Below are positions 26,276-64,000 of a DNA stretch of 64,000 bases, piece after piece. A model generated the notes under the pieces. That model worked only from the letters and a program-made list of their open reading frames with translations, did no database searches and had not been told where the DNA came from. Within the stretch, counting starts at the first letter, position 1. Each line of letters starts with the position of its first letter. Made by a program: the position numbers and the translations under genes. The stretch covers positions 62,001-126,000 of the forward strand of contig NQMI01000103.1 in assembly GCA_002270565.1 (NCBI GenBank), given 5' to 3'. This DNA is from Stenocarpella maydis. Its lineage: Eukaryota > Ascomycota > Sordariomycetes > Diaporthales > Diaporthaceae.

Positions 26276-27747
26276 TCAAGTGGTTTGTATAATATAAAGG
26301 CTAAAAAAGCGAGTGCGTACCGTTTCACGGTGCAGAAACAAGTCATAGACGGGGCTGCTTAGCTCGTAGATACTTTTCGGCCTGCACATGGTCCGGATCA
26401 GCGACTGCGCAATCGACTGGCTGAGCAATGAATGGCCGACCTCTTCAATAGCATCTATTCCCTGTGCCCATTTCAAGAAGGCCGCAGAGCCGAATCTAGC
26501 ATTCATGTTGGGCTTGGTGTCCTTCAAGGACCTGTATTGCCAGTATCCGGAGTCGGACGTTTTTATCTGGGGCGGTGGCCTCGAGAAGATTTCTAGGTTG
26601 TAGCTTGCCCAGGCTTTAATTCGCTCGCATCTTGCCTTTCTCAAGTTCTGCCAGTCCTCGCTGATTTCTTTTGTGTTGGCCTCGGGGTTCGGAAATTTTG
26701 ATGCAAGGTAGTCGAGGACTCCAATGTCTTCCACAATCAGTGAATACCCCTGTGCAGTGTTTGGGTACATGGCGTGCTGGGGCCGTCAGTCACTCCTCGT
26801 GCTTTGGATCCGCGATATGCCGCAGGATTTGTCCGACTTACCGCAGAATCGCCGAGCAAAAAGATTCGTCCGTTTTCGGTAGCCCACCGGGGGAGGTTCG
26901 GAAGCTCAGCCAGCTTCCATCTGTTACAGGTCTCGGCTATATCAAGTACTTTCACAAGCTCCCGGCAGGAACCCTGGAACATCTTCCGAACGTATTCGAT
27001 ATCGCCCTCTTCGTCCCACAGCCCCTTCTGGTCGGTGTCACCTTTGATGCTGAACAACGCTTGGAATGTGCCGAGCTTCTTGTTGTACCTGCTCGTTACG
27101 TGTACCAGGCTATTCTCACCCACATACACGTTGATGTATGAGTTATCAATAAGGGGACTCATCTCCGGTAAGCGGATCATTTTCTCCTTATTCAAAAGGA
27201 TGCCATACAGCGTCACATCGCTGACAATAGGGTCGATTGGCCCGGAGAGCCCTTGGGGAGCTTGTTTGCGGATCGTGGACCGTATACCGTCTGTCGCCAG
27301 AACCAGGTCTGCAAGCAAAACTGTTCCGTCCCCTAGCAATACTTGGGCTTCTTGATGGCTATCCGTGACACGGGCAACTGATGTATTAAACTCAAGCAAC
27401 GCACCAGCTTCGAGAGCACTCTTGCGTATGAGTGATATTAGTATATCTCGGTTCGTGCCCAGATCCGGAGAATGGGAGATATCAACTGCGATGGTGCGAG
27501 TAGCGACCTGTCCAGTCTTCAGACTTCGGAGGGCATTGGCAGTTGTGATATCGCAGATCTGCTCCAGCGCTCCAGCCAAACCCCACCCCTGGAGAAGCCG
27601 AGTGGCACCTGGACGGATTTTGATACCGCCGCCGACAGGTGCCGGGTCAGGGCGCTGCTCGAGGACTTTGACCTTGTGGCCACTGCGAGCAAAACATAGC
27701 GCGGAGCTAAGGCCACCAAGGCCTGCACCAACGATAATGATTCTCAT
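26276..27747 (-). CDS. FAD-dependent monooxygenase (salicylate hydroxylase-like)
   Basis: Two exons, 27747-26842 and 26776-26276, with a 65-bp intron (donor GTAAGT at 26841, acceptor CCCCAG) in phase 0, 468 aa. The Rossmann motif IIIVGAGLGGLSSALCFARSG lies at residues 3-23. The DG motif is LATDGIRSTIR, and splicing joins GDSA to HAMYPNTAQG, giving the GD motif of group A flavoprotein hydroxylases. These use NAD(P)H and O2 to hydroxylate small aromatics. The C-terminus after LFLHRET may carry one more short intron (GTACGC near 26320). Similar enzymes act on salicylate or 6-hydroxynicotinate; no direct neighbour tells the substrate, although a nicotinate-type cluster begins 25 kb away. Confidence 0.87.
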
Positions 27748-29078
27748 GGTGGGAAGAGGTGAAGAATTGAGGAGTCAAGTGAGCTTTCGGAGCAAGTTGC
27801 GATGCGCATCGGTTGGTGTCCTTTTTATGGATGAGCCGAGGCACCACAATGTAGTACTTCACCAAGCGCCACGTTGGTCTCGGTACACATATGACATGTT
27901 GGCAGTTGGGGTAGGGACTTTTAATTAAGTCTTGGCCATAACATGTCGACCTACACATTTACAAGCTGTGAAACGAATCCAAGGTGTTCAGTGTTTTCAG
28001 TGCACGTGTCTTTCCATAACATTTGGCTTTTTAGTGAATATGGTAGCCAGAACTCGACTCCAGGGAGCCGAGAATCTTCACGGAATTGGGCGGATCGTGT
28101 GTATCCTGAATACTCATAACTACACCAATGAAGAACATTGTTCATTAATGGATAACAATTGGCGCCATGAACGAGCCCAACATATAGGCTTGCCATACTG
28201 TGTATCATAGCATGAGATTACCAAGAACTGCGAAATGGAAATCCACTTCGGAATATCCATGCCTAAAATCTCTTAAAATCTACACCCCTGGGGTTTGCAG
28301 AGCTTGAAGCGAATGCTCGGCTTCAACTGTGACACTCTGATCCTTCTTAAGCCGCTTGCGCCTTGCAATGATTTTATGTGTCTTTTCTCGCGACTTAAGT
28401 AACCTTGACCGTACGTGTTAGGCTGCAGAGCGCTGTGACAACTGTGCGTCTGGTTCTGCCGCGCCTGACAAATTCCGTGATTTATTTGCTCAACGAATCC
28501 ATATAATCCCTCGTCCAGCCATGGTCAAGGATGTTACATATAGCCTGGCACCTGTCAAGCCTCCCTGTTCCGGTGCGCTGATGTTCTGGACCTTGCTCCT
28601 CCTTACCGGCCGCGTTCCATGCTTGGTGGATCGACGCAACGGCTTGCCAGGCCTGCTTCAGTTGCACACCGCGACCATCTCAAGGGGTGGCGCGATGCGA
28701 AGGTGTCTCAACATGCGACGTGTTGATGAGCTAAAATACAACTAAAATATCACCCCTATTGTGACCTTCTACGGCGCTGATTCTCAGGTAAATTAGGTCT
28801 TGCAGCTGGGGGACACCCGCGGACAGGCCAGGACACGACTCACTGGCTGCCTGGGCTGGAGCTATGCAGGAAGGCCCGAGACTGCTCACAGAAGATACTG
28901 GGCGCTCATACTGTGCACCAGGGGTTCGAGACAACTCACCAGGGTAGCCTTACCATGAAATTAATGTTCTCAGGCAGTATACTGACCTGCGGGCGTTGAA
29001 GCGTCGTGCAACACCACCACTACGACTTGCGCAGCCAGAGTTGCAGAATGAGTCCGTCGCACATCATCGTTCTCTGCT
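27748..29078. other. Intergenic, no gene recognised
   Basis: 1.3 kb with only short ORFs. It holds the promoter of the FAD monooxygenase (leftward) at its left end. Confidence 0.5.
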
Positions 29079-47379: not shown

Positions 47380-50300
47380 ATGGAAGCAATCGGCTTGGCT
47401 TCCTCCATCATAACCTTTATTGACGTTGCGTACAAGATTGTACACGGGGCGCATGAGGTGTACACTTCCCAGGATGGGGCAACCAAGAGTAATGACCACA
47501 CTGGCGTGGTAGTGAGTGATCTGCAGCGTGTTACGGAAGACCTGCGATCTCACCAACTTAGTTCCCATGACCAGGAGCTCATCGCCTTGTCAAAAAAGTG
47601 CCATCATCTCTCTGGTGAGCTCTTGCAATTGTTGCACAAGTTCCTCCCGAAGACTCCGGGGAAATGGCAGAGCTTTGCTGCAGCATGCCGGATTCTGAGG
47701 AAGCAGAAAGAGGCCGCCTCGATGGAAGCAAGCCTACACAGATATCGCCAGCAGATTGCCGAACGCTTACTCTGGCTCCTGTTGTGAGTGCCCCGACCCC
47801 ATGTCGTGAAGAATGGCACAAGCTTGCTAATATCGGGGAAACAGCAAGCAGCAGTCCCCGATCAAGAAGTCTTTAGACGACATGCTGCACCATGCAAATT
47901 CTCTTCACAATTCTAATGCACGAAAGATGGAAGACGTGCAATGTCAACTATCACAGACCATTGAATATCTTGGCCAGCTGGCCCAGGCCAGTCACCGCGG
48001 CAATGAACTAATGCAAGATCTTCTCTTTCAGACCAACAATAAACTTGATCAGCTGCAAGTACCGATGGCGACTCCGGCCGCTACAACGATGACCCAGGCC
48101 CAAGTCCTGAATGATCTTGTTATTCAAACTCAAGAATTGAGCTCTCTCGTTCACTCTATGCCGTCTCAGAATCGAGTACTGCGGCGTCTCTTCTACCGTT
48201 CAATTTTCCGCAGAGAAGACGAAGTCATCAACGCGGAAGCGAGAACTTTTAGGTGGATATTTGATATCGCTTCAGAACAGCGTGAAACTGATACCTTTCT
48301 TACGTCGCAACAGGGTGGCATCACCCGCAATGGGCGTCTTGAAGAAACAGAGCACCGCTTGAGAGTCCAGACGTCGAGAGTCTTCATCAAATTCCTTCGA
48401 GATTCGAGCTGCACACTTTTTGTGCAAGGGAAGGCAGGCTGCGGGAAATCAACATTCATGAAATATGTTGCCCACCATGAAATTACGGATTCAATCCTCA
48501 AAGCCTGGGCCGGGAGCAAGAAGCTAGTCACTATCAAAGTCTTCTTTTGGAGATCCGACGATCTACTCCAGGAGTCAATCGAAGGCTTCCTACGCTCAAT
48601 ACTGTTTCAAGTCCTGAGCCAATGCCCGGAGCTCATCAACGCCATCTTTCCTCATACTCCGTCAGGCCAATTCGACGCTGTCGAGTACCGACTCTCAGAG
48701 CTGGAGAGCGCCTTTTCCAGTCTCCTGAACCTCACGACAGAGGACGAATATTGCTTCTTCTGCTTCATAGATGGCCTGGATGAACACCAGGGGGATAATT
48801 TGAGCCATCAGAACCTCGCTTCTCAGCTTGTCTCGTGGGCATCACTGAGCAACGTCAAGATAATGTGTTCTGCCCGACCTTCTACTGTCTTCATCGAAAC
48901 CTTCCAGGAGTCAGGAGACGTCATCGAGTTTCACAAACTTACTCGTAGCGACATTTCAAACTTTGCTGAGTCAAAGTTCGTAGAGTCGCTAGCTAAGCCG
49001 AAGCTACAGGAAGCGCAAAGAAACTGCCTTGAACTCGTGCAAGATATCACTGAAAACGCTCAAGGGATATTTCTATGGGCTTTTATGGTCGTCCGCACAC
49101 TCATCAACCAGGCTCTCGACCAAGATAGTAGCGACAAGGCCCTTCGACAAAGACTCCAGCAATGCATCGAACGCGACAACCTGGACAGCTTGTTCGAGGT
49201 GATATTACAGCGAGTCGACAAAGCGCCGTATGTACAGATGAGATCGAATATAGTGCTGTACATCGCTGCAAATAATCCTTTCGAGTCACCTCTCAACGCA
49301 CTTGTATTTTCTTGGCTAGATGAGTTGGAGTGGTTTGAAGGCTCCTTCGATGGAAACCCGGCGCCCAGTGACGGCGAACACGACTACAGCAGCGAATCGA
49401 TTTCTCCCAGGATATACCGGGTCACCAGCATGCTTCATCAGCTCACTCAAGGCCTTCTCGAAGTGGTCGACACTCGCGACCCGGCCCCTTACTTCCGTCA
49501 TCGCGTTGACTTCTACCATCGTTCTGTTCGAGACTATCTAAGAAACCAATGGAAAACGGGCGCAAGACAGAGCCCGTTCCCAAACCTGCACGAAGAAGTG
49601 CAGGCCTACTGTCGACTACGGAGCCTCGAGGCGCTGCGCAGAACACGTCGACGTTTCATACGAGAAGACCAACTCAGTGGAACAGGAGAGGAAGCAGATA
49701 CAAGCGTCTTAATCAACCTGAGATCCCTGTTCGAGTACACATTTATCTGGCTTAGTTCTTGCTCCCGGGAGAACAAACAGCCTTCCAATGTGAGCCTGCG
49801 AGAATTTGAGAAGGCCCTCCTCCAATCGGAACAGTCCTTCCCGCCGTTTCTGCTTGGAAGATTGCTTATCAACGAAAAGGTATCCTGGAGGTATCACTCC
49901 CGCAATGCCATTGGCAAGACGTCATTTCTCCACTGGGCAGCGTACTGGGCACAAGGAGAGTTTGTCAAGTCCAGGGTTTCAGCTGGCTCATGGGAAGAGT
50001 GCAAGAACATGTCCGCTCCACATGAACTCAACTTGCTCCTGTCATCATCGGCCGCTGCTGACGTGGACACGACGCGATACCTGCTCAAGAATAGCCACCG
50101 CCCAGAAGAGCCAATGAAAATATTTGATCTGAAAATAGGGTCTGACTAAAGCTGGCAGACCAGCTTCTCAGAATTCAACTCTGGTAGCTCACCTCCAACT
50201 TGGAAATCTATCCATCACTACATGGAAACTCAGCCCAGTGGGGTTGAAACAACCACGACAGTTTGGATGGTTCTTCTCAGGGATTTCGTTAGTAATGTGA

Positions 50301-53056: not shown

Positions 53057-54224
53057 ATGTCTAATGAAATTCCCCTCATTGATTTCTCTGGTAGGAAACT
53101 CCGAGTTCCCAGTCAAAGATCCCTTGAACAGCGTGTCTGACAGAGTTACTCTGGGCAGATTTCTATTCTCCCGATCCCATAATCAAGGCCAAAGTCGTCG
53201 ATCAAATCCGACGGAGCTGCTTGTACAATGGGTTTTTCCAGATCAAGAATCACTCTGTGCCTCTAGGCCAGCAGAGCGCGGTGATGAACAGCGCCAAGAA
53301 GTTCTTCTCTCTGGACCTGGAAGAAAAGCAGAAGGTGTCTAAGAATAACAACACCTGGAATCGCGGGTACGAGATGCTACGATCGCAGATTTTGGAGGAG
53401 GGCACCCAGCCTGAGCTCAAGGAGGGATTCTACATTGGAGATGACATCTCTCCTGACCACCCCTATTTCGTGAACAAGAAGCTCAACAGCGGCCCAAATC
53501 AGTGGCCAGAGCCACTGGGCCATACGTTCCAGGAAACGACCATGGCATACTACAAGTCAACAGTTGACTTGGCAGCTGATTTACTAAAGGCCCTAGCACT
53601 ATCTTTGGATCTCGATGAAGACTACTTCTCCAAATTCATGGACGGTGCTGTGGCAACAATGCGTTTGCTTCACTACCCGAGTCAACCAGCGGATGCGGAC
53701 GATAAACTGTCACGCGGTATCGGAGCTCACACAGACTTCGGGGCCATCACTCTGCTCCTGCAAGATGAGGTAGATGGTCTGCAGGTCTGGGACGAGCGTT
53801 CGGAAATTTGGATTGATGTAAGTTCGCTCTCTTTGAATGGTGGAAATTGCTAACTCATTACCAGGTCGAACCAACTAAGGGAGCTTTTGTTGTCAACCTA
53901 GGAAACCTGATGTCGCGATGGACGAATGAGAAGTACAAGAGTAATGTACATCGCGTCATTAACAAGTCAGGAAAGGAGCGCTACTCTATTCCTTTATTCG
54001 TATCTGGTAACCCCGATTATCTAGTCGAGTGTATTCCGACCTGTAAGGCACCGGGTGAGCCAGCGAAGTTCCCCTCTGTCACGGTCCAGGAAGCCGTATC
54101 TGCAGCCTACGCTGAGTCCTATGGCAGGGCTCAGCTTTACAAACATGGCCTGGAGAAGGTTGTTGGAAGTACCCAGGCAAAAGCCCCATCTCCAGCAGCT
54201 AGCAACCCGATGGCTGCAGCTTGA
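53057..54224 (+). CDS. hxnY: 2-oxoglutarate/Fe(II)-dependent oxygenase (HxnY-type)
   Basis: Exons 53057-53090, 53159-53817 and 53865-54224 (introns of 68 and 47 bp), 350 aa. Splicing builds the opening IPLIDFSDFYSPDP. The N-terminal DIOX_N part contains NGFFQIKNHSVP. The iron ligands are H202 and D204 in GAHTDFGAITLLLQD and H260 in SNVHRVINK; R270 and S272 in RYSIPLF bind 2-oxoglutarate. Members oxidise small molecules with O2 and 2-oxoglutarate. It is the first gene of a six-gene run that matches the hxn nicotinate-catabolism set of Aspergillus nidulans, where HxnY is the 2OG oxygenase. The symbol rests on that set, not on a sequence comparison. Confidence 0.82.
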
Positions 54225-54864
54225 AACCAGTTTGGACAAGAAGTTAGCCAAGCGGTGTTGTATTGCGGGCAATTCTGTACCATACGGAAAAGTTAGATGA
54301 GCATGAAGCAATATCAAATCAGTCTGTCTGGATCATTAGTGCATCGGATAAATGTCTAGGTGTGAGTGGAGTGTGAAATGGAGCCCATCTTGTGCCGTGA
54401 TTCAATGATCATACACGCTTACTCGGTATTGCAGAAGGTGTTGGAAAGAGCTTCATGTTCACAACCACACTCGAGTTGGGCAAATCGGTTGCTTCCAAAT
54501 GCCGAATATATGCTCCACCATAAACGTTGGTATGGACATCTCCAATGGTACCCTCAGGGCAGTGCATCCATCGGCCTATCAGCGACAGCCTCCCACTTTT
54601 GATTCCGGTCATGCAGCTTAATGTTGCTACATGCAGTGACAGGGTGCCTATCAGTAAGTGACGCACTTGTCCTACTTTGGTCTCACAACTAGCCAGTTAT
54701 CATCTCAGATAAGACAGGCGTTGACACGGATGAATCCCTTCTGGTTAAGGGGGAGAAACACATATTAATAAATAGGAGCAGATGTTACACCCAAACACTT
54801 TCGGAACGAGCCAAGCATAGTAAATCGTACGTACAACAGAAGCAAGCATTTCACAATAATCAAA
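54225..54864. promoter_or_regulatory. Promoter of the MFS gene with GATA site
   Basis: Contains AGATAAG at 54707-54713, an AreA-type GATA element, about 150 bp before the MFS start codon, plus a further GATAA near 54346. Nitrogen control is inferred. Confidence 0.45.
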
Positions 54865-56631
54865 ATGATAGAGTCTACTGACCTTGAGAAGAAGGGTGTA
54901 GCCGTGGACGGGTTGGCGGATGATCACACGACGGCAGAAGGCCAAGCGCACCGAGCGGAGCAACTTCATACCGACCTAAGCAGCGAGAGGAAATATGGTG
55001 AGTCTCATGAAGTGTGTCCGAATGGCGAGATCCAAGTTAGAAGTTGTGCTCACATCTGCTTTAGTTCGAAAGCTAGACTGTTGGCTGTTGCCATTCCTCA
55101 GCATGATGTACTTCTTCAACGCTATCGATCGAGTAAGTCATGCCGAAGCTCGCATGTGAAATGGAGACCCCAATATTGACAAAAGAGTTCTGCAGAGTAA
55201 CCTGGGAAATGCCGAAACTGACGGGATGGGTGACGATATGCACTTCATGGGGCAGGAGTACTCATTGCTCATCCTTCTGTTCTACATACCGAATGGCCTG
55301 TGTGATCTTCCTCTCAACATGTTGACGAAGCGTTTCTCGGGCAAGGTCATGCTTCCTCTACTCATGACAGGCTGGGGCGCAATGTCCATGCTCCAGGCAG
55401 CTTGTACAGGTTTTGCCGGCATCTTGTTTGTTCGTTTGATTTTAGCGTAAGTATTCATTCGAGATCTGATAAGTGATCTGAAAAATGGTAGCTAATTGAG
55501 AACACAGGTCTCTGGAAGCTGGTTTTTTTGCTGGGGCAGTGTTCTACCTCACACTCTTTTATACTCGAGGCGAGCTGGGTTTCCGCATAGCCCTGTTCTT
55601 CGGCAGCGCACTGCTTGCTGGAGCATTCTCTGGTCTGCTCGCATTTGGTGTGTTCCAGATTAGAGAATCACACGTTAAAGGATGGTGAGTTTTGCTACGC
55701 TTATCTCAAAGTGACAGAAGCTCAAAATCTAATTGCTTTTCTGGTTCAAAGGATGTGGCTCTTTATCACTGAAGGTGGAATGACGGTCATCATGGGCATC
55801 GTGGCTTTCTTCTGGCTCCCGTCAACACCCGCCACTGCTTGGTTTCTTACCGAGGAAGAAAAGGCTTTGGCAAAGATGAGGCAGCTGCGCGATGGCTCCG
55901 GCCAAGTTGGGGAGACCTTCACACTCAAAGACTGTTTTCGCAGCTGGAATGACCGCAAGTTTGCTGTGTGGTGTGTTATCAGCTTCACTTATCCCGTGGC
56001 GTTTGCGACAACGGCGAACTTTTTACCTTTGATCCTCAAACGGCTCGGGTACAATACCGTGATCACAAACCTCCTCACTGTCCCGCCGAATATCGTCGGA
56101 TTCTTGGTCCTCCTAGCCGTGACTCGCAGCTCGGACAAGAACCGCGAACGTTCATTTCACATTATTGGCTCATTGCTCCTCAGTCTAGCAGGGCTTATCA
56201 TACTGGCAGCGGTTCCATCAGACACAGGCACCACAAACATTGCAGTCGCATATTTCGCATGCTTTCTTTTGTGCAGTGGCGCATACATTCCAAGCTGTCT
56301 TGTCCACAGCTGGCACAACAACAATAATCTCAACGAGACATCTCGTGCTGCGACGACAGGCCTGTTGGTTGGTCTCGGCAACCTGGGGGGCATATTATCA
56401 GGGGCGACCTTCCGGACTAATTACGCCCCACGTTATATCCCGACGCTTGGCGCAACCGCCGCGTGTAATGTGGTATGTGTTTGCTTCACCCTGTGTTTGG
56501 GTCTTTGGATGCGTAGGGAAAACTCAAAGAAGAACCAAGAATGCGGAGCTATCTTGAATGCGGGAGACGTCGACACAAGGGACGTGGGTGGTTTAGGAAC
56601 CAAGGACTCCAGGTGGAGATATTTTGTGTAG
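54865..56631 (+). CDS. MFS transporter, Dal5-like anion:cation symporter (HxnP/HxnZ-type)
   Basis: Five exons with consistent phases: 54865-54997, 55065-55132, 55196-55446, 55508-55684 and 55752-56631, 502 aa. A hydrophilic N-terminus precedes RKLDCWLLPFLSMMYFFNAIDRSNLGNA, the diagnostic start of the allantoate/nicotinate permease (ACS) family. It is followed by about twelve membrane helices and the central loop with FLTEEEKALA. The family imports organic anions such as allantoate, nicotinate, pantothenate or phthalate by proton symport. In the hxn clusters two MFS proteins (HxnP, HxnZ) occur; which of them this is cannot be told. Located at the plasma membrane and encoded next to the catabolic enzymes, it is the likely uptake step. 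Confidence 0.87.
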
Positions 56632-56875
56632 TGTTTGAATGTAATGATCACTGTCCAACTTCATCACTCGATGGCTTGCTTGGCTGGGCCATTCATTGGG
56701 CCACGCGCATATGTTAGGGTATCATCGCATCAGACGCTAATCACCGAATCTTCACAACTCAAACTGCCTAGATTTCGCCTAGTTACTTGCGAGGATATTC
56801 AAGACGAGGGACTGGGATTTCGTTAACACTAAGGTATTTCAAGACTTCAATTGAGAAGGATAGAGGTTCTAGGGA

Positions 56876-58110
56876 TTAGGCTCCCTTCGCCTTGTTTTCC
56901 CGATACTTCCGCATCACCTCCTGGGCATCTGCGGGCATCAGGGCGCCAGGTGCTGGCGTGTTCTTGCTCTTGAAATGGTCACTCATCTTGACGTAAGAAT
57001 TAGCAACTCAAGCACAGTTACCGAATTGATGACGAGTCCAACATACCTCAGCCATCGTGACCCATCTAACACCCTCGTGTCTGTTGATGTGCTCGATGAT
57101 GCGCTCATGCATGAGCAAGACATGTGGACGACCCGACACGTCCGGGTGGATGGTCATTGGGAAGATGAACTCATCTGCCAGGCTGTTAGTTGATGCCAAA
57201 AGGGGGAAATAAACGTAAAGACCTGCCATATTCCCGGTAGAAGTAATCAAAATGGTCTTTCCAGATATCCTCGACATCTCTGCCATAAGTTAGCGTTACA
57301 TCCGCCCTACAGCACATTTTGGCGGTCCCAAAAGCTACCTTGGGTTGACCCATCCGTGTGAGTTGGCGCTGTTCTTGATGAACATCATAGGAGGCAAGTC
57401 ATCAATGTACCAGGAACCTGGAATCTCAACGAGCCCAGTCTCTTGGCCTTTCTCCAAAGGCTTCATCCACTCTTCCGCTTTCTTTGTGTAGTCAATTTTC
57501 GTCCAGGAATCCCCTGTACGGAGCCAGTATGCCTGGCAATCGTGGTGCGACATCGAGTGATCATACTCAATGCCGTAACTGAGCATGAGTTCGGTCCCCT
57601 CCTTGCTGGTTTCCCACCATGGGGCAACAGAGCCACGAGGCGGCTTGCCACAGAAATCCGTAAGCATCTTCCAGGTCTTATCCAGCACATCTCTTTGCTG
57701 TTCAATAGTCATGTCGCTGGGGTTTTCATGGCTGTAGCCGTGTAGGCCAATCTCATGTCCCGCATCGCGAACCATAGCGCACTCCTCTGGAAAGGTTTCC
57801 AGGGAATGGCCCGGGATGAACCAGGACGCTTTGATGTTGTACTTCTCGAACAGCTTCAGAAGCCTACGGGTCCCAATCGTACCGGCCCAGATCCCTGCAC
57901 CGAGTCAGAATCGTGATGGAGTTTGTCATTGCCATCAAACTTACCTCGGCTGATGTCGCTGGAGCTGTCTTCGCCCCCATAGGATCCGAGCCAACCTGCA
58001 ACTGCGTCGATGTCGACGCCATAGCTGTCACGAAATCAACATCTACAGTCTGACTCAAGAAATGTCCATTTCGCCTGAGCTCACCAGACCAAAACTTCTT
58101 TCTTGCCCAT
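56876..58110 (-). CDS. hxnM: Polysaccharide deacetylase/PuuE-like hydrolase (HxnM-type cyclic imidase)
   Basis: Six exons read leftward: 58110-58085, 58024-57945, 57894-57339, 57279-57227, 57174-57047 and 56986-56876, 317 aa. The fold is that of NodB-type deacetylases as in PuuE allantoinases. It opens with [20 protein letters not shown] (D13/D15). Metal-binding HGYSH lies at H87/H91 in [12 protein letters not shown], then [28 protein letters not shown], and late [19 protein letters not shown]. Intron 4 appears to use a GC donor (TATG|GCAGGT) with an AG acceptor after an ACTAAC branch. Cyclic imide hydrolases of this type open hydroxylated imide rings in nicotinate breakdown. Divergent from the neighbouring dehydrogenase. 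Confidence 0.83.
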
Positions 58111-58758
58111 GTTGACGTTGATTGTACAGCAATGGTGAATCTGGCTAGCCGATGTTCTCGTCCAGCGTTGCTTTGGTGATCGGCACACAAGCTGAACCAG
58201 CGCAAGGGGTGGTGTTTAGGGCGGGGTTTGCTTTCCAACTGCAACTGAACGAATTTGGCCACTTTCGCCAACACAGCCTATCACACATCAGGGCCCCCGA
58301 GACACGGCGTGATATGCACGTCGCCGGTACCAACCAACCGGCACCAGTAGCTGAGGCCTTCTGTAAAGGGTTTAATGGCAGATACTGGAGCTTCCCCTCC
58401 TTTCCCCACTCTTGACATCTTGGGCCAAGGGTTGATCCTCAACCGACAAACACCACTTATGGAAATACATTTCGAGCTACCTGTTATCTCAACCTTCAAT
58501 TCTGGCAGACCCCTAACGTGGAAGATGCAGAATTTCATGAGGCCATGGCCTCAATGCAAGTAGTTTGAAATGGGTCTTACTCGCGACCGCTGTAGGCATC
58601 CCCGGAGAGCCAAACGCCTGTACCAGAGCTTTATCTGTCTACAGGAAAGGTTTCAGTGAATTCTGCAAATCTATTGCACCCTTGCGTCACATCACTACTC
58701 GCACAAGACTATCGCCAAAATCAGAGACGTCGTAAAGACGAGACCACGAGCGAGAACC
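58111..58758. promoter_or_regulatory. Divergent promoter between the imidase and dehydrogenase genes
   Basis: 648 bp shared by two divergent start codons. GATA-type sites (TTATCT) lie at 58484-58489 and 58631-58636. It is expected to drive both genes together under nitrogen and pathway control. Confidence 0.5.
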
Positions 58759-59596
58759 ATGTCCAAGGTAGGCACAAGAACCACAATATAAAATAACTTG
58801 TGGGGATAGATCATGGCGTGAGTGTTAACCTTGTTGCGTACAGTTTTCATTAAACGGAAGGGTCGCTCTAATCACCGGAGGAGCTAGAGGCTGCGGCCTT
58901 GCATTCGCTCAAGGTCTGGCCGAAGCAGGCGCAGATGTGGCCATCTTCGATATCATCCCGCCCTCACCATCTCTGGCCCAGCTCACCACAGACCATGGCG
59001 TTCGAACAAAAGCATACACGGTCGATGTGACGTCTGTCTCGGGCCTGAAGACCGCATTTGGAGCATTCAAGGCTGACTTTGGTGGGCGGCTTGATATTGT
59101 GGTTGCGTGTGCGGGCGTGAACAAGAACGTTGAGCTCCTCGACACCACGGAGGAAGACTTCGACAGGTTATTCGGAGTAAACTGCAAGGGTGTCTACTTC
59201 ACCGCCCAGCTGGCAGCCAAACAGATGATCGAGAACGGCACCAAGTGCGGCAGCATCATCCTTGTTGCCAGCATGGCTTCATATATCGCCATCCGCTCCC
59301 AGCGCTCCAGTGCCTACTGTGGGACAAAAGGGGCGGTGAAGGCCATGGTAGCACCAATGGCTGCAGAAATGAACAAGTATGGAATTCGAGTGAACTCAGT
59401 GAGCCCGGGCTTTGTCAGGACTGAGATGACGAGCCCGTTTCCCCATTTGTTGGAGAGTTGGAAAGATGAGGTTATGCTTGGTCGGGTTGCAGAGCCGGAT
59501 GATATCAAGGGGGCATGTGTATTCTTAGCTAGCGATGCAAGCAAGTACTGTACTGGGACAGACATCGTGGTGGATGGAGGTGTGACTAAGTGGTAA
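58759..59596 (+). CDS. hxnW: Short-chain dehydrogenase/reductase (HxnW-type)
   Basis: A 9-bp first exon (MSK, 58759-58767), a 76-bp intron (GTAGGC, TACAG) and exon 58844-59596, 253 aa, the usual size of a classical SDR. Cofactor motif TGGARGCG begins at residue 14. NNAG equivalent is CAGVNKN, catalytic Ser in LVASMAS, YCGTK gives Tyr and Lys, and SPGFVRTEM and GTDIVVDGGVTKW close the protein. It oxidises or reduces a hydroxyl/keto group with NAD(P)(H). The tiny first exon was chosen because only it supplies an ATG in frame with a normal N-terminus. In the hxn set the SDR is HxnW. Confidence 0.87.
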
Positions 59597-59763
59597 ATAT
59601 CGGCATTTGCTGCAGGGGAGCAATAACGAAGTAGTCAGTCAGTAAACCCTCAGAGACGTCGCAACTGTTGACCGGTTCAACAAAATTTACATGTTCCACT
59701 ACCTGTCCATCACTTGCTAGCCATTCAATTGTATATGCTATCTTAGAAATGATATTCTATTTC

Positions 59764-61714
59764 CTAGACGTACCCCGAATAAAATGGGTGCCGAGCATAG
59801 GTACCATTGCTAGCTTTTATGACACCTTCTACCACTCTTCCAATTCCGAGGACCTTTTCTTCCTCCAGTTTACGTCCGATGATTTGCAATCCGACAGGCA
59901 ACTTAAGCCTGGCCATCTCCTCCCGATTTTCTTCCCACAAGCCCAAGCTCCACTCGTCTGTCTCGCCTCGTGGTTTGAAGTCCCACGGCGTTTGCACGTC
60001 TTCCTCACGTACCGCACCGCCTGGTATCACAAGTGCGGTATAGTCCAGGACATTCCAGATTTTCGTATATCCTACCCACCTGCAGCTCTTATGGGGCACA
60101 GCAGTGTGAGGCATAGGAGGCATGAGGACTGCATCGACTATCCTCCCATCGCTGGTACGTATGGAGTTCCACTTCTCCAGATACGCCTGCTGCAAAGACC
60201 ACTTGTGCCGGTTAAGCTGCCAGTACTCAAAGACCGAGATTGCCTGGCCTCTGTTAACCAGCTTTTCCACGTGCGGAATGAATGGTTCGCCCCCGGCTGC
60301 GGTTGCGGCACGAATATCCTCGCCGCCGTCTGCCGTGTAGAAGTCATCCAACACCTGGATGCACTCCGGGTGTAGACCAGCGTTCCATTCTACAATTTTA
60401 TGTCCTGCGGACCGGAGAGATTCGACAGCTTCCTCTAGAACGCGAGAAATCGGTGGATGTGGTCGAGCCACACCATCGTCTCGAAGCACGCCAATGACCA
60501 GGGGCCGCGAGGTGACATCGTGATACATATTTTCTCTCCATGGTATTGGGACGCATTTAGAATCAAGCTCCCAAGGTCTTGAATTAATCAGTGACTTCAT
60601 GGTCAGCTCGATTATGTCCAGGCTGCGTGCCATAGGTCCGACCGAGGATGGCACGTGCTCTTGGCCTTCGGTTGACACCGGCACGCCATTATAAGGTAGT
60701 CTTGCACTCTGAAGTGGATGTGATTAGCTAAAGGAACTGTGGTTTGCTCCCTGGAGAGGCGCATTCAGAGTGAACTTACACTTGGCTTGAGACCGTATAT
60801 GCCCATCATGTGCGAAGGTATACGAATACTTCCTCCTATATCGGTTCCCATACCGAGCATACTCGCGCCACTGGCAATCAGGACAGCCTCGCCTCCGGTG
60901 GAGCCCCCGGGCGTATAATCGCGGCTGTAGGGGTTCGTGGTCAATCCCCAAAGCGGATTCTCCGTTTCACACCACATAATGCTCTGGGGCAGGTTGGTTT
61001 TCGCCAAGACGACTGCCCCCAGTGACTTCAACATTTTGACAACGGTGGCATCCTGGCCGGCGGGGTTGAATGCTCTCCCGACATATCCCAGAGTCGTGTC
61101 ATAGCCTTTCATATTAAACTGATCTTTCAGGCTTACCGCCAGACCATGCAGTGGCCCAATAGGCTCATGAAATTGGGCGAGGTGCTTGTCGAGGCTTTGA
61201 GCGGTCTCTAAGGCGTCTTCAAAACAGACCTCTGTCAAGCTGAAATGGACGATTAATGAGTGAGCAGGCAAAAATCAGAGTCAATAATAATTATGCATAC
61301 CAGTTTGTCTGTAGGAAGTACAAACGGATTGACTTAGCTTTTACAATCTCTTTGTCCATTGTTGGACTCGGGATTACGAGTCACCTGAACTTTCCATAGC
61401 GTTGAGAGTGAGCTTACCGATTTGTGAACCGTACAAGTCCTAGGACAGGATCTCAGTTTTCTATGCAATTTCGCAACTAAGCTTTGATACTGACATGGGT
61501 TAACTCACTTTTTGATTCGGGACACCACGACGGTTTCGCAGGACATCCTCGCACTCGCAATATCATGAAGAACTTGCCCATCGTTGACCAAGTCTTGCAC
61601 GTTGATGCTACAGCCTAATGATTCGGACTTAGTATTCTCATTAAAAGCAGCAAACCGTTTGACTGCTTCTGCCTGGTCGCGTTTCTTCTCAGCGACGACA
61701 TCCTGCCAAGTCAT
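59764..61714 (-). CDS. hxnN: Amidase signature enzyme (HxnN-type)
   Basis: Leftward. Firm exons are 61714-61509, one ending at 61301 (...FLQTN, with split Cys), 61239-60780 and 60708-59764. The joins give QTNCLTEVCFEDALE and GLKPSSARLPYNGVPVSTEG. The exon or exons between 61509 and about 61360 could not be resolved, and the 5' part may need checking for damage. Ser-Ser-Lys triad: Lys in LAVSLKDQFN, cis-Ser in PGGSTGGE, nucleophile Ser in GTDIGGSIRIPS. The total is near 550 aa, normal for fungal acetamidase/fatty-acid-amide-hydrolase-like enzymes. It would release ammonia from an amide made by the imidase. The symbol comes from cluster content. Confidence 0.8.
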
Positions 61715-62480
61715 CTCGCTGCTTTCGTCGCGTATCGCAGATATTGGTTGTTCTTTGTGCTAGAGAAAAATCTGTAACTTGTACAATGAATGACACTACA
61801 AATCGAGTGGCAGCGCCGCTCCCGACTATCCGGCCCGGTCGCGGAAGTCCGTGACTACAGTTAAGTTAGAGATATCCTGTACCCTTGCTCTATCAAGCCT
61901 ACATAGTCCGCCAATGAGAACACAGAGGACCCCCACTTAGTTATGTAGCGTCATGACCAAAACATTCAAGAATGCCATTGGGCAATCATCTGCCCGTATC
62001 CCTGGCCGCATACGGAGTAGGGTTAGATCAAGCTTATCTACCGCTTACTGGAGGCGGTCACAACGTCACTGGTTAGCGTCAACATCCGAAATGCACAACG
62101 GCGCTCATGTGGCAGGGATAGTCGCGTCGCTCAAGAGTGGGGGCACTTCCGAGTCTGAGTGTTTTCCGCCATGTACCAAATGCAGACAGACAGCCTGAGG
62201 TGTTTGCAGAGCACTAGGCTGCCCTTCAAGGATAAGGCAGGCATGGCCAGGAGACTCACGTCATGCCGTGAGCTGATGAGCAACTTGAGGGGCCGATCAG
62301 GTACAAGCCTGGTCAAGCAACACAAAACCGTAGCTCTCTTATGAAGTCTAGGTTCTGGGTGACTTATTGTCGGCTTACTTGTGCTTTGTTGGGTTTCAGG
62401 CAGAAGTCATTTCGCCACGCAGAAGCATCTGGCTCAACACGATTCTCAACAAGGCAAACGGGGAAGTGGCGCGAGGAGAC
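61715..62480. promoter_or_regulatory. Divergent promoter between the amidase and FAD monooxygenase genes
   Basis: 766 bp between divergent starts, with GATA-type sites CTTATCT at 62033-62039 and GATAAG at 62231-62236. Short ORFs here have no coding features. Confidence 0.5.
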
Positions 62481-64000
62481 ATGGCTGAATCGACAAAATG
62501 CGGTGTTTGTGTGGTCGGTGCTGGGCCTGCCGGCATCATGTTGGCGTAAGCCATGTTAGACCCGAACAATAGACCATCTACTGACTGAGTGCATCAGAGC
62601 TCTCTTGGCGAGGTTCGGCATCAAGGTCGAAATACTAGACGAGAGGGCGGACCAGACGACAGTGGGAAGAGCCGACGGTCTTCAGCCCAAGACAATAGAG
62701 ACCTTTCAGATGATGCGTCTCGGTGGTGAACTTCTTGACACTGGAGTCAAGGTCTTTGATATCTGCATGTGGCGCTCTCAGGTAGATGACAACGGGAACA
62801 CCGGCCTGCTCCGTGTCGGGCGCGAGGTTCATTACCCTCCTGACGCTGTTGATGTTCTTCACCCCTTCATCCTGCTATGTCATCAAGGCATGGTGGAGGG
62901 AATGTTTGTCGATGACCTGCGGCAGAGCGGCTTTGAAGTCCGGCGTGGGTGCAGGTTCGAAACTTTTGGCTACGGACAAGGGGACGGGGGTTCTCCAATC
63001 CAAGTCACATACACCCATGACGGCTCGGAAAGGAGTATTCAATCTGACTACCTCGTGGGCTGTGATGGGGCTCGCTCACGGGTCCGCCAGGGTATTCCCG
63101 GAACATATGCAGAGGGAAACTCTCATGATTCTTACTGGGGCGTGCTGGATGGAGAACTCAAAACCGACTTCCCTGATATCTGGAGCAAGACCGTTGTTTA
63201 CTCAGAGCAGCACGGGTCAGTTCTGATTATTCCCCGTGAGCGCAACTTGACACGCTTCTACATCGAAGTCAAGAATCAGCAGAACTCCGTCGATGAGACC
63301 TTCGTCATGGACCAAGCCAGGAAGATCATGTCCCCATACAAGCTGGAGTGGCTCTCGGTCGAGTGGTTCGGCAACTACCGCGTCACACAACGAGTGGCAG
63401 CCTGCTTCTCCGACTCTACGGGCCAACCTCCGCGAGTATTCATCGCCGGTGATGCCAGCCATACGCACAGCCCCAAGGCCGCCCAGGGTATGAACACCAG
63501 CATGCACGATTCATGGAACCTCGGCTGGAAGTTGAATCTCGCCCTCCGTGGGCTCGCCCAAAAGGACATCCTGCTCGGGACCTACGAAGAGGAGAGGAAG
63601 AAGATCGCCCACGACCTGATCGATTTTGATTACGAGCATGCCAACAGCATCGCTGGTGGAGACGCCAAGGCTTTGGCCAAGAACTTTCGCACCAACATCG
63701 GCTTCATATCTGGTGCTGGAGTTGAGTACGGCCGCAACGTCCTCAATGATTTGGGAATGCCCGCCAAGAGCCTTCAAAACGACCATGCGCTGCAAGGTGC
63801 GGCTCGCCCTGGCCGGAACCTGCCCCCGGCCAAAGTAACCCGTTACATTGACGACAATCCTGTGGATATCCAGCTGGATATACCAGTCCTGGGCCAGTTC
63901 CGTGTCTTTGCCATTGTACCAGACCTCATTGCAGCATCTAGATTTCTGAGCAGGTTTAGTGAGTCCGTCCTGGCGGAGAACTCGCTCGTCTCGCAGCTGT
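62481..64000 (+). CDS. hxnV: FAD monooxygenase of the phenol 2-monooxygenase family (HxnV-type), partial
   Basis: Exon 1 62481-62545, a 52-bp intron (donor GTAAGC, acceptor ATCAG), exon 2 from 62598 open to the window end (about 490 residues). Motifs are VVGAGPAGIMLA for FAD (residues 12-23), GRADGLQPKTIE, LVGCDGARSRVR (DG motif) and FIAGDASHTHSPKAAQGMN (GD motif), then NLGWKLNLALRG. This layout is that of phenol/resorcinol hydroxylases and of HxnV. The C-terminal thioredoxin-like part continues beyond the edge. Group A flavoprotein using NADPH and O2 to hydroxylate an aromatic ring. Confidence 0.87.

What the first reader, a model, noticed from the sequence alone, without database searches (positions are those of the whole stretch)
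53057..64000. Nicotinate-type (hxn-like) catabolic gene cluster
Seen: six adjacent genes encoding a 2OG/Fe(II) oxygenase, a Dal5-type MFS, a PuuE/NodB-fold hydrolase, an SDR, an amidase and a phenol-hydroxylase-type flavoprotein. Known: the eukaryotic nicotinate-inducible hxn cluster of Aspergillus nidulans contains exactly these classes (HxnY, HxnP/Z, HxnM, HxnW, HxnN, HxnV). Inference: this is a contiguous Sordariomycete-type version. The genes characteristic of the first steps (hydroxylase HxnS, HxnT, HxnX, regulator HxnR) are not in the window, so it may lie to the right or be a variant for another N-heterocycle.
Basis: partly seen in the sequence, partly recalled or inferred. Interest (0 to 1): 0.78.

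Follow-up and report, generated by a model that had tools for sequence, protein, structure and literature searches.

The report
Fungal nicotinate-degradation (hxn) gene cluster
This is the left part of an ordinary fungal gene cluster for using nicotinic acid (vitamin B3) as a nitrogen source, in what looks like a Diaporthe fungus; the rest of the cluster lies just past the end of the window and the gene for the first enzyme is elsewhere in the genome.

Summary
Six intron-containing genes of the stated classes, without internal stops, lie at 53057-64000, the last cut by the window end. The same contig beyond the window adds an HxnZ-type transporter, an old-yellow-enzyme (HxnT), an NicC-related monooxygenase (HxnX) and a C2H2 plus Fungal_trans regulator (HxnR): order Y-P-M-W-N-V-Z-T-X-R. 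An intact hxnS lies on another contig and shows the published HxnS-specific differences from the genome's xanthine dehydrogenase. So all 11 hxn gene classes are present. Six of 120 listed HxnR hits are named nicotinate-cluster regulator; two of 120 listed HxnY hits are named hxnY. In Diaporthe australafricana the HxnR and HxnY homologues, on contigs of the same printed length, are nine locus tags apart, as here. Divergent couples hxnM-hxnW and hxnN-hxnV are kept; hxnY-hxnP is tandem. A second, truncated hxnZ copy beyond the window is probably an assembly artefact. Predicted regulator sites are not enriched; induction was not testable. New member of a known kind, low surprise.

The parts
53057..54224 (+). 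hxnY: Fe(II)/2-oxoglutarate oxygenase, 355 aa, exons 53057-53090, 53144-53817, 53865-54224
   Evidence: model; Pfam; homologues named hxnY 77% and 73% identical (P0244, P0261), D. australafricana 89%
54865..56631 (+). hxnP: MFS transporter, 502 aa, five exons
   Evidence: model; MFS_1; position between Y and M; no database search of its own
56876..58110 (-). hxnM: NodB-fold hydrolase (cyclic imide hydrolase by analogy), 321 aa, six exons
   Evidence: model; Polysacc_deac_1; best solved relative 3qbu, 434 bits
58111..58758 (.). region between the divergent genes hxnM and hxnW (bidirectional promoter by inference)
   Evidence: geometry; 4 HGATAR and 3 GHGGGG sites, not enriched
58759..59596 (+). 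hxnW: short-chain dehydrogenase, 253 aa, two exons
   Evidence: model; adh_short_C2; Ser-Tyr-Lys spacing kept
59764..61714 (-). hxnN: amidase-signature hydrolase, 546 aa, five exons incl. an 8-bp exon
   Evidence: model (a shorter first model was replaced); Amidase 350 bits; two named Diaporthe hits 73% and 83%
61715..62480 (.). region between the divergent genes hxnN and hxnV
   Evidence: geometry; sites not enriched
62481..64000 (+). hxnV: phenol-hydroxylase-type flavoprotein monooxygenase, 625 aa, three exons, cut by the window end (ends at 64460 = C5:126460)
   Evidence: model; FAD_binding_3 + Phe_hydrox_dim; relatives 1pn0 and 2dkh; active-site spacing

Best explanation
It is the hxn nicotinate-utilisation gene cluster of an ascomycete that by protein similarity is a Diaporthe or close relative. 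Ten genes lie together as hxnY-P-M-W-N-V-Z-T-X-R (C5:115057-142531; six of them in the window), and hxnS sits on contig C257. [quoted passage not shown] HxnS makes 6-hydroxynicotinate; HxnX (peroxisomal) replaces the carboxyl by a hydroxyl to give 2,5-dihydroxypyridine; HxnV hydroxylates it to 2,3,6-trihydroxypyridine; HxnT, with an unknown reductase, reduces the ring; HxnW oxidises the product to 3-hydroxypiperidine-2,6-dione; HxnM opens this ring; HxnN releases ammonium, leaving alpha-hydroxyglutarate; HxnY has no fixed step. HxnR, answering a pathway metabolite, would switch them on. Shown here: gene content, order, open frames, a set of residues, homology for R, N and Y. Inferred: every reaction, and the regulation.
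For: All 11 hxn classes present without internal stops. HxnR: 6 of 120 listed hits named as the nicotinate-cluster regulator. HxnY: 2 of 120 listed hits named hxnY. D. australafricana HxnR and HxnY homologues are tags 010224 and 010233 with the same printed contig length, a ten-gene span as here. Contig lengths shared between hit lists: 35 for R and N, 15 for R and Y, 13 for N and Y, 5 in all three. Divergent couples hxnM-hxnW and hxnN-hxnV (reported as conserved in PMC8478523 section 2.3) are both present. HxnS differs from the genome's HxA at the points given in PMC5746545: FATAL for FTAL, the His after it, Ser-Gly for Ala-Ser, Pro for His, Ile for Phe. Residues named in PMC9304392 for HxnX, HxnV, HxnT and HxnW mostly have counterparts by motif and spacing.
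Against: hxnY and hxnP are tandem, not divergent. hxnS is unlinked. Predicted AreA and HxnR sites are not enriched in any of seven intergenic regions. The zinc fingers of HxnR reach Pfam's zf-C2H2 only below its curated cut-off, 20.5 against 25.2 bits, though two C2H2 motifs are there. HxnX's best solved relatives are decarboxylating 4-hydroxybenzoate/vanillate hydroxylases (8gsm, 319.5 bits), above NicC (157.5 bits). 0 of 120 listed HxnN hits carry an hxnN name. HxnP, M, W, V, Z, T and X rest on class, position and residues, not on homologue searches of their own. In D. batatas the HxnR and best HxnN hits are 237 locus tags apart.
Confidence: 0.95

Rival explanations
1. A cluster derived from hxn but now serving another N-heterocycle or cyclic imide.
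For: hxnS is unlinked, hxnY-hxnP orientation differs, a carbon-nitrogen hydrolase gene lies about 3.5 kb right of hxnR, and HxnX scores best against benzoate-type decarboxylating hydroxylases.
Against: The regulator HxnR and an intact hxnS with the checked diagnostic residues are present; the reported 6-hydroxynicotinate-binding His/Tyr pair of HxnX is kept by spacing.
Confidence: 0.04
2. Chance neighbourhood of unrelated catabolic enzymes of common families.
For: FAD_binding_3 and amidase matches are frequent in this genome (22 and 41 exon-wise matches).
Against: All ten genes modelled in a row are hxn classes, with the specific regulator, the conserved divergent couples and linkage in other genomes; five further open frames scanned in the gaps matched no Pfam family.
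Confidence: 0.005

Closest known systems
hxn regulon of Aspergillus nidulans (PMC5746545, PMC8478523, PMC9304392)
   Same: All 11 gene classes; regulator of the C2H2 + PF04082 type; HxnS with FATAL motif; most reported active-site residues checked.
   Different: A. nidulans has three clusters; here ten genes are together and only hxnS is away. hxnY and hxnP are tandem here.
Single-cluster hxn arrangement of Cyphellophora europaea and Hymenoscyphus repandus (PMC8478523)
   Same: hxnM and hxnN are inside the cluster; divergent couple hxnM-hxnW kept (hxnN-hxnV also, as in C. europaea).
   Different: Those have all 11 genes in one cluster including an hxnS-hxnT couple; here hxnS is unlinked.
Homologous genes in Diaporthe australafricana (locus tags 010224 and 010233, seen only as protein hits)
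   Same: HxnR and HxnY homologues, 76% and 89% identical, at the same nine-gene distance.
   Different: Only the two end genes were seen; the genes between were not read.
Bacterial nic pathway (Pseudomonas putida NicC)
   Same: NicC-related monooxygenase for 6-hydroxynicotinate.
   Different: Later steps use different enzymes and intermediates (PMC9304392 abstract and passages).

Membership tests
hxn cluster | Pathway-specific regulator HxnR (two C2H2 fingers + PF04082) linked to the enzymes | tested here: met
   C5:139496-142531; PF04082 166 bits, zf-C2H2 below its cut-off; two C2H2 motifs; 48-50% to Colletotrichum proteins named as this regulator
hxn cluster | hxnV, W, X, M, N enzyme classes present and intact | tested here: met
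hxn cluster | hxnZ, Y, P, T present and intact | tested here: met
hxn cluster | hxnS in the genome with the FATAL insertion and other HxnS-specific residues | tested here: met
   C257:168647-173295, compared with PMC5746545 passages
hxn cluster | hxnS linked to the cluster (variable between species) | tested here: not met
   hxnS on C257, cluster on C5; unlinked hxnS is reported in other species (PMC8478523), so not a defining feature
hxn cluster | Divergent couples hxnM-hxnW and hxnN-hxnV | tested here: met
   gene models
hxn cluster | Divergent couple hxnP-hxnY (mostly conserved in Pezizomycotina) | tested here: not met
   both on + strand, 640 bp apart
hxn cluster | AreA (HGATAR) and putative HxnR (GHGGGG) sites in promoters | tested here: inconclusive
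   HGATAR in 7 of 7 regions and GHGGGG in 5 of 7, none enriched over the window's first 50 kb
hxn cluster | Co-induction by 6-hydroxynicotinate, ammonium repression | not testable with these tools
   needs expression data
hxn cluster | Each protein inside its A. nidulans Hxn clade | tested here: inconclusive
   3 of 11 proteins searched (R, N, Y); no A. nidulans name seen in the listed rows; no trees made

The most novel reading that the evidence does not exclude
The Diaporthe-like lineage has widened the hxn regulon: the unlinked hxnS is followed by its own transporter as a separate import-and-hydroxylation unit, and dispersed paralogues of hxnM (about 74% identical), hxnN (about 47-68% by exon) and hxnV (50-68% and 46-65%) serve related N-heterocycles or imides, with a nitrilase-superfamily gene near hxnR feeding in nitriles.
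Probability: 0.06. Interest if true: 0.4.

Novelty: new member of a known kind. Interest (0 to 1): 0.2.

Why it matters
It places a complete hxn gene set in a Diaporthe-like genome with hxnS detached from a ten-gene block, one more data point on how catabolic clusters assemble and break up. It gives ready predictions (growth on nicotinate and 6-hydroxynicotinate) but does not change the known pathway.

Tried and rejected
Real second copy of hxnZ: judged unlikely, not excluded. A 2222-bp stretch carrying hxnZ (65608-67829) recurs at 70615-72835 at 99.87%. For: the second copy starts inside hxnZ directly after a single N (an assembly join), and the differences (two mismatches, one gap) all lie in a repeat element that begins at 67619. 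That element has 39 other listed places (capped: 40 of 1280 first-look candidates scored). The tail after the first copy matches C218 over 1990 bp (printed as 100%; 99.9%, two mismatches), and its last 600 bp matches another repeat at 39 other listed places. Against a simple wrong extension into the C218 copy: one of the two mismatches to C218 lies at 68819, outside the shared end piece. An unmerged contig overlap next to repeats remains the likelier reading.

A second hxn-like cluster at the paralogues: in 20-kb stretches around the HxnM, HxnV and HxnN paralogues on C12, C296, C7 and C111, no other Hxn protein matched at E 1e-5 except a 26% match to HxnX near the C111 amidase. Ten neighbouring open frames on C111, C12 and C296 were scanned: six matched families other than hxn classes, plus the MOSC/Fer2 one, and three matched none. 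C7 neighbours were not scanned.

Regulatory sites: no enrichment found.

Papers: 'Diaporthe' with 'nicotinate catabolism' gave 0 papers; a one-of-two-terms search with 'hxnR' showed ten Diaporthe papers without hxnR. PMC8478523's main text does not name Diaporthe; its supplements were not available to me, so the genus may be in them.

Full report
Check. The six genes reported at 53057-64000 are real. I modelled them by hand: hxnY 53057-54224 (+), hxnP 54865-56631 (+), hxnM 58110-56876 (-), hxnW 58759-59596 (+), hxnN 61714-59764 (-), hxnV from 62481 (+). Each has introns and none an internal stop.

To the right. The window is C5:62001-126000 of a 53.5-Mb, 312-contig genome. Reading on, hxnV ends at C5:126460; then come an MFS/sugar-type transporter (hxnZ, C5:127547-129361), an old-yellow-enzyme (hxnT, C5:135399-136762), a flavoprotein monooxygenase on the other strand ending in ARL (hxnX, C5:138800-137301) and a regulator (hxnR, to C5:142531). 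The regulator has PF04082 at 166 bits; a C2H2 finger is found below Pfam's cut-off and two C2H2 motifs by pattern. I first started it at C5:139382; the D. australafricana protein aligns from residue 39, so C5:139496 is likelier. ARL as a peroxisomal signal is recalled; that HxnX acts in peroxisomes is from PMC9304392. Five open frames of 100-140 aa in the gaps V-Z, Z-T and T-X match no Pfam family; the gaps were not annotated further.

hxnS. PF02738 gives three matches at two loci. C1 carries FTAL and is taken as the xanthine dehydrogenase HxA. C257:168647-173295 encodes 1495 residues in my model, or 1492 with a more usual donor site, with the expected XDH-type domains. It has FATAL followed by His, Ser-Gly for Ala-Ser, Pro for His and Ile for Phe where PMC5746545 puts HxnS-specific residues (passages; alignment). 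The Ile position was judged by eye. This HxA has Trp, not Phe, where HxnS has the His. An MFS gene lies just downstream.

Homologues. HxnR: the 18 best hits are 74-82% identical, the five named ones all Diaporthe; 6 of 120 listed hits (170 in all) are named nicotinate catabolism cluster-specific transcription factor, all Colletotrichum, 48-50%. HxnN: two named Diaporthe hits at 73% and 83%; 0 of 120 listed carry an hxnN name. HxnY: D. australafricana 89%; 2 of 120 listed (2462 in all) are named hxnY, both Colletotrichum, 77% and 73%; others bear names such as isp7 or encD. The genus is inferred from protein similarity only.

Linkage elsewhere. Read against the tables, both rows name the same species wherever both are named; one R-N and one R-Y pair are unnamed. 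Some contigs are chromosome-sized, so this shows one contig, not closeness. Locus tags: D. australafricana R 010224 and Y 010233, nine apart as here; Fusarium lateritium R 011529 and N 011524, five apart as here. Against: D. batatas R and N are 237 tags apart, and other species show other distances, so order varies.

Order and couples. PMC8478523 (sections 2.1-2.9 read) reports divergent couples hxnM-hxnW and hxnN-hxnV as conserved; both are here. The couple hxnP-hxnY is mostly conserved there; here the genes are tandem. It also reports hxnV duplication in Sordariomycetes. This genome has hxnV-like genes on C296 (50-68% by exon) and C7 (46-65%), an hxnM-like gene on C12 (74% over the main exon) and an hxnN-like gene on C111 (47-68%).

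Mechanism. The route given is that of PMC9304392 (abstract, section 5 part 1 of 4, and passages). Reported residues with counterparts here by motif and spacing: HxnX His252/Tyr256; HxnV Lys219, Leu231, Ile233, Tyr243; HxnT His192/Asn195; HxnW Ser146/Tyr161/Lys165; HxnN amidase motifs (recalled). The HxnW Asn is two residues off the reported spacing, the HxnV Asp (48) five off, and the HxnT Tyr was not located; none was aligned to the A. nidulans proteins. HxnX scores higher against decarboxylating benzoate-type hydroxylases than against NicC, which fits the reaction type but does not fix the substrate.

Regulation. HGATAR and GHGGGG counts in seven intergenic regions do not exceed the background of the window's first 50 kb (lowest fraction 0.058).

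Assembly. The second hxnZ copy beyond the window is probably an artefact (see tried and rejected).

Verdict.

Noticed in passing
C5:127608-134835 (window coordinates 65608-72835, beyond the window): hxnZ appears twice, the second copy truncated at a single-N join; differences confined to a high-copy repeat element. Probable unmerged contig overlap.
   Followed up: yes
C5:146015-147067 (L011:1515-2567, minus strand): Carbon-nitrogen hydrolase (nitrilase-superfamily) gene about 3.5 kb right of hxnR; might make nicotinate from a nitrile, untested.
   Followed up: partly
L017:6668-8665 (C257): MFS gene directly downstream of the unlinked hxnS, same strand, 32-38% identical to HxnP piece by piece.
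   Followed up: partly
window 26737-27774: A second FAD_binding_3 monooxygenase on the minus strand, about 30% identical to HxnX.
   Followed up: no
window 47831-50149: NACHT/nephrocystin-type NTPase gene left of the cluster.
   Followed up: no
L030/L031 (C111:522557-524108): HxnN-like amidase with a weakly HxnX-like monooxygenase about 2 kb away, near MOSC, AMP-binding and carboxylesterase genes.
   Followed up: partly
C5:129619-131313 and 39 other listed places: A 1.7-kb repeat element, 86-91% identical to most listed copies (one, on C218, 99.9%), whose first 210 bp also occur directly in front of some full copies.
   Followed up: partly
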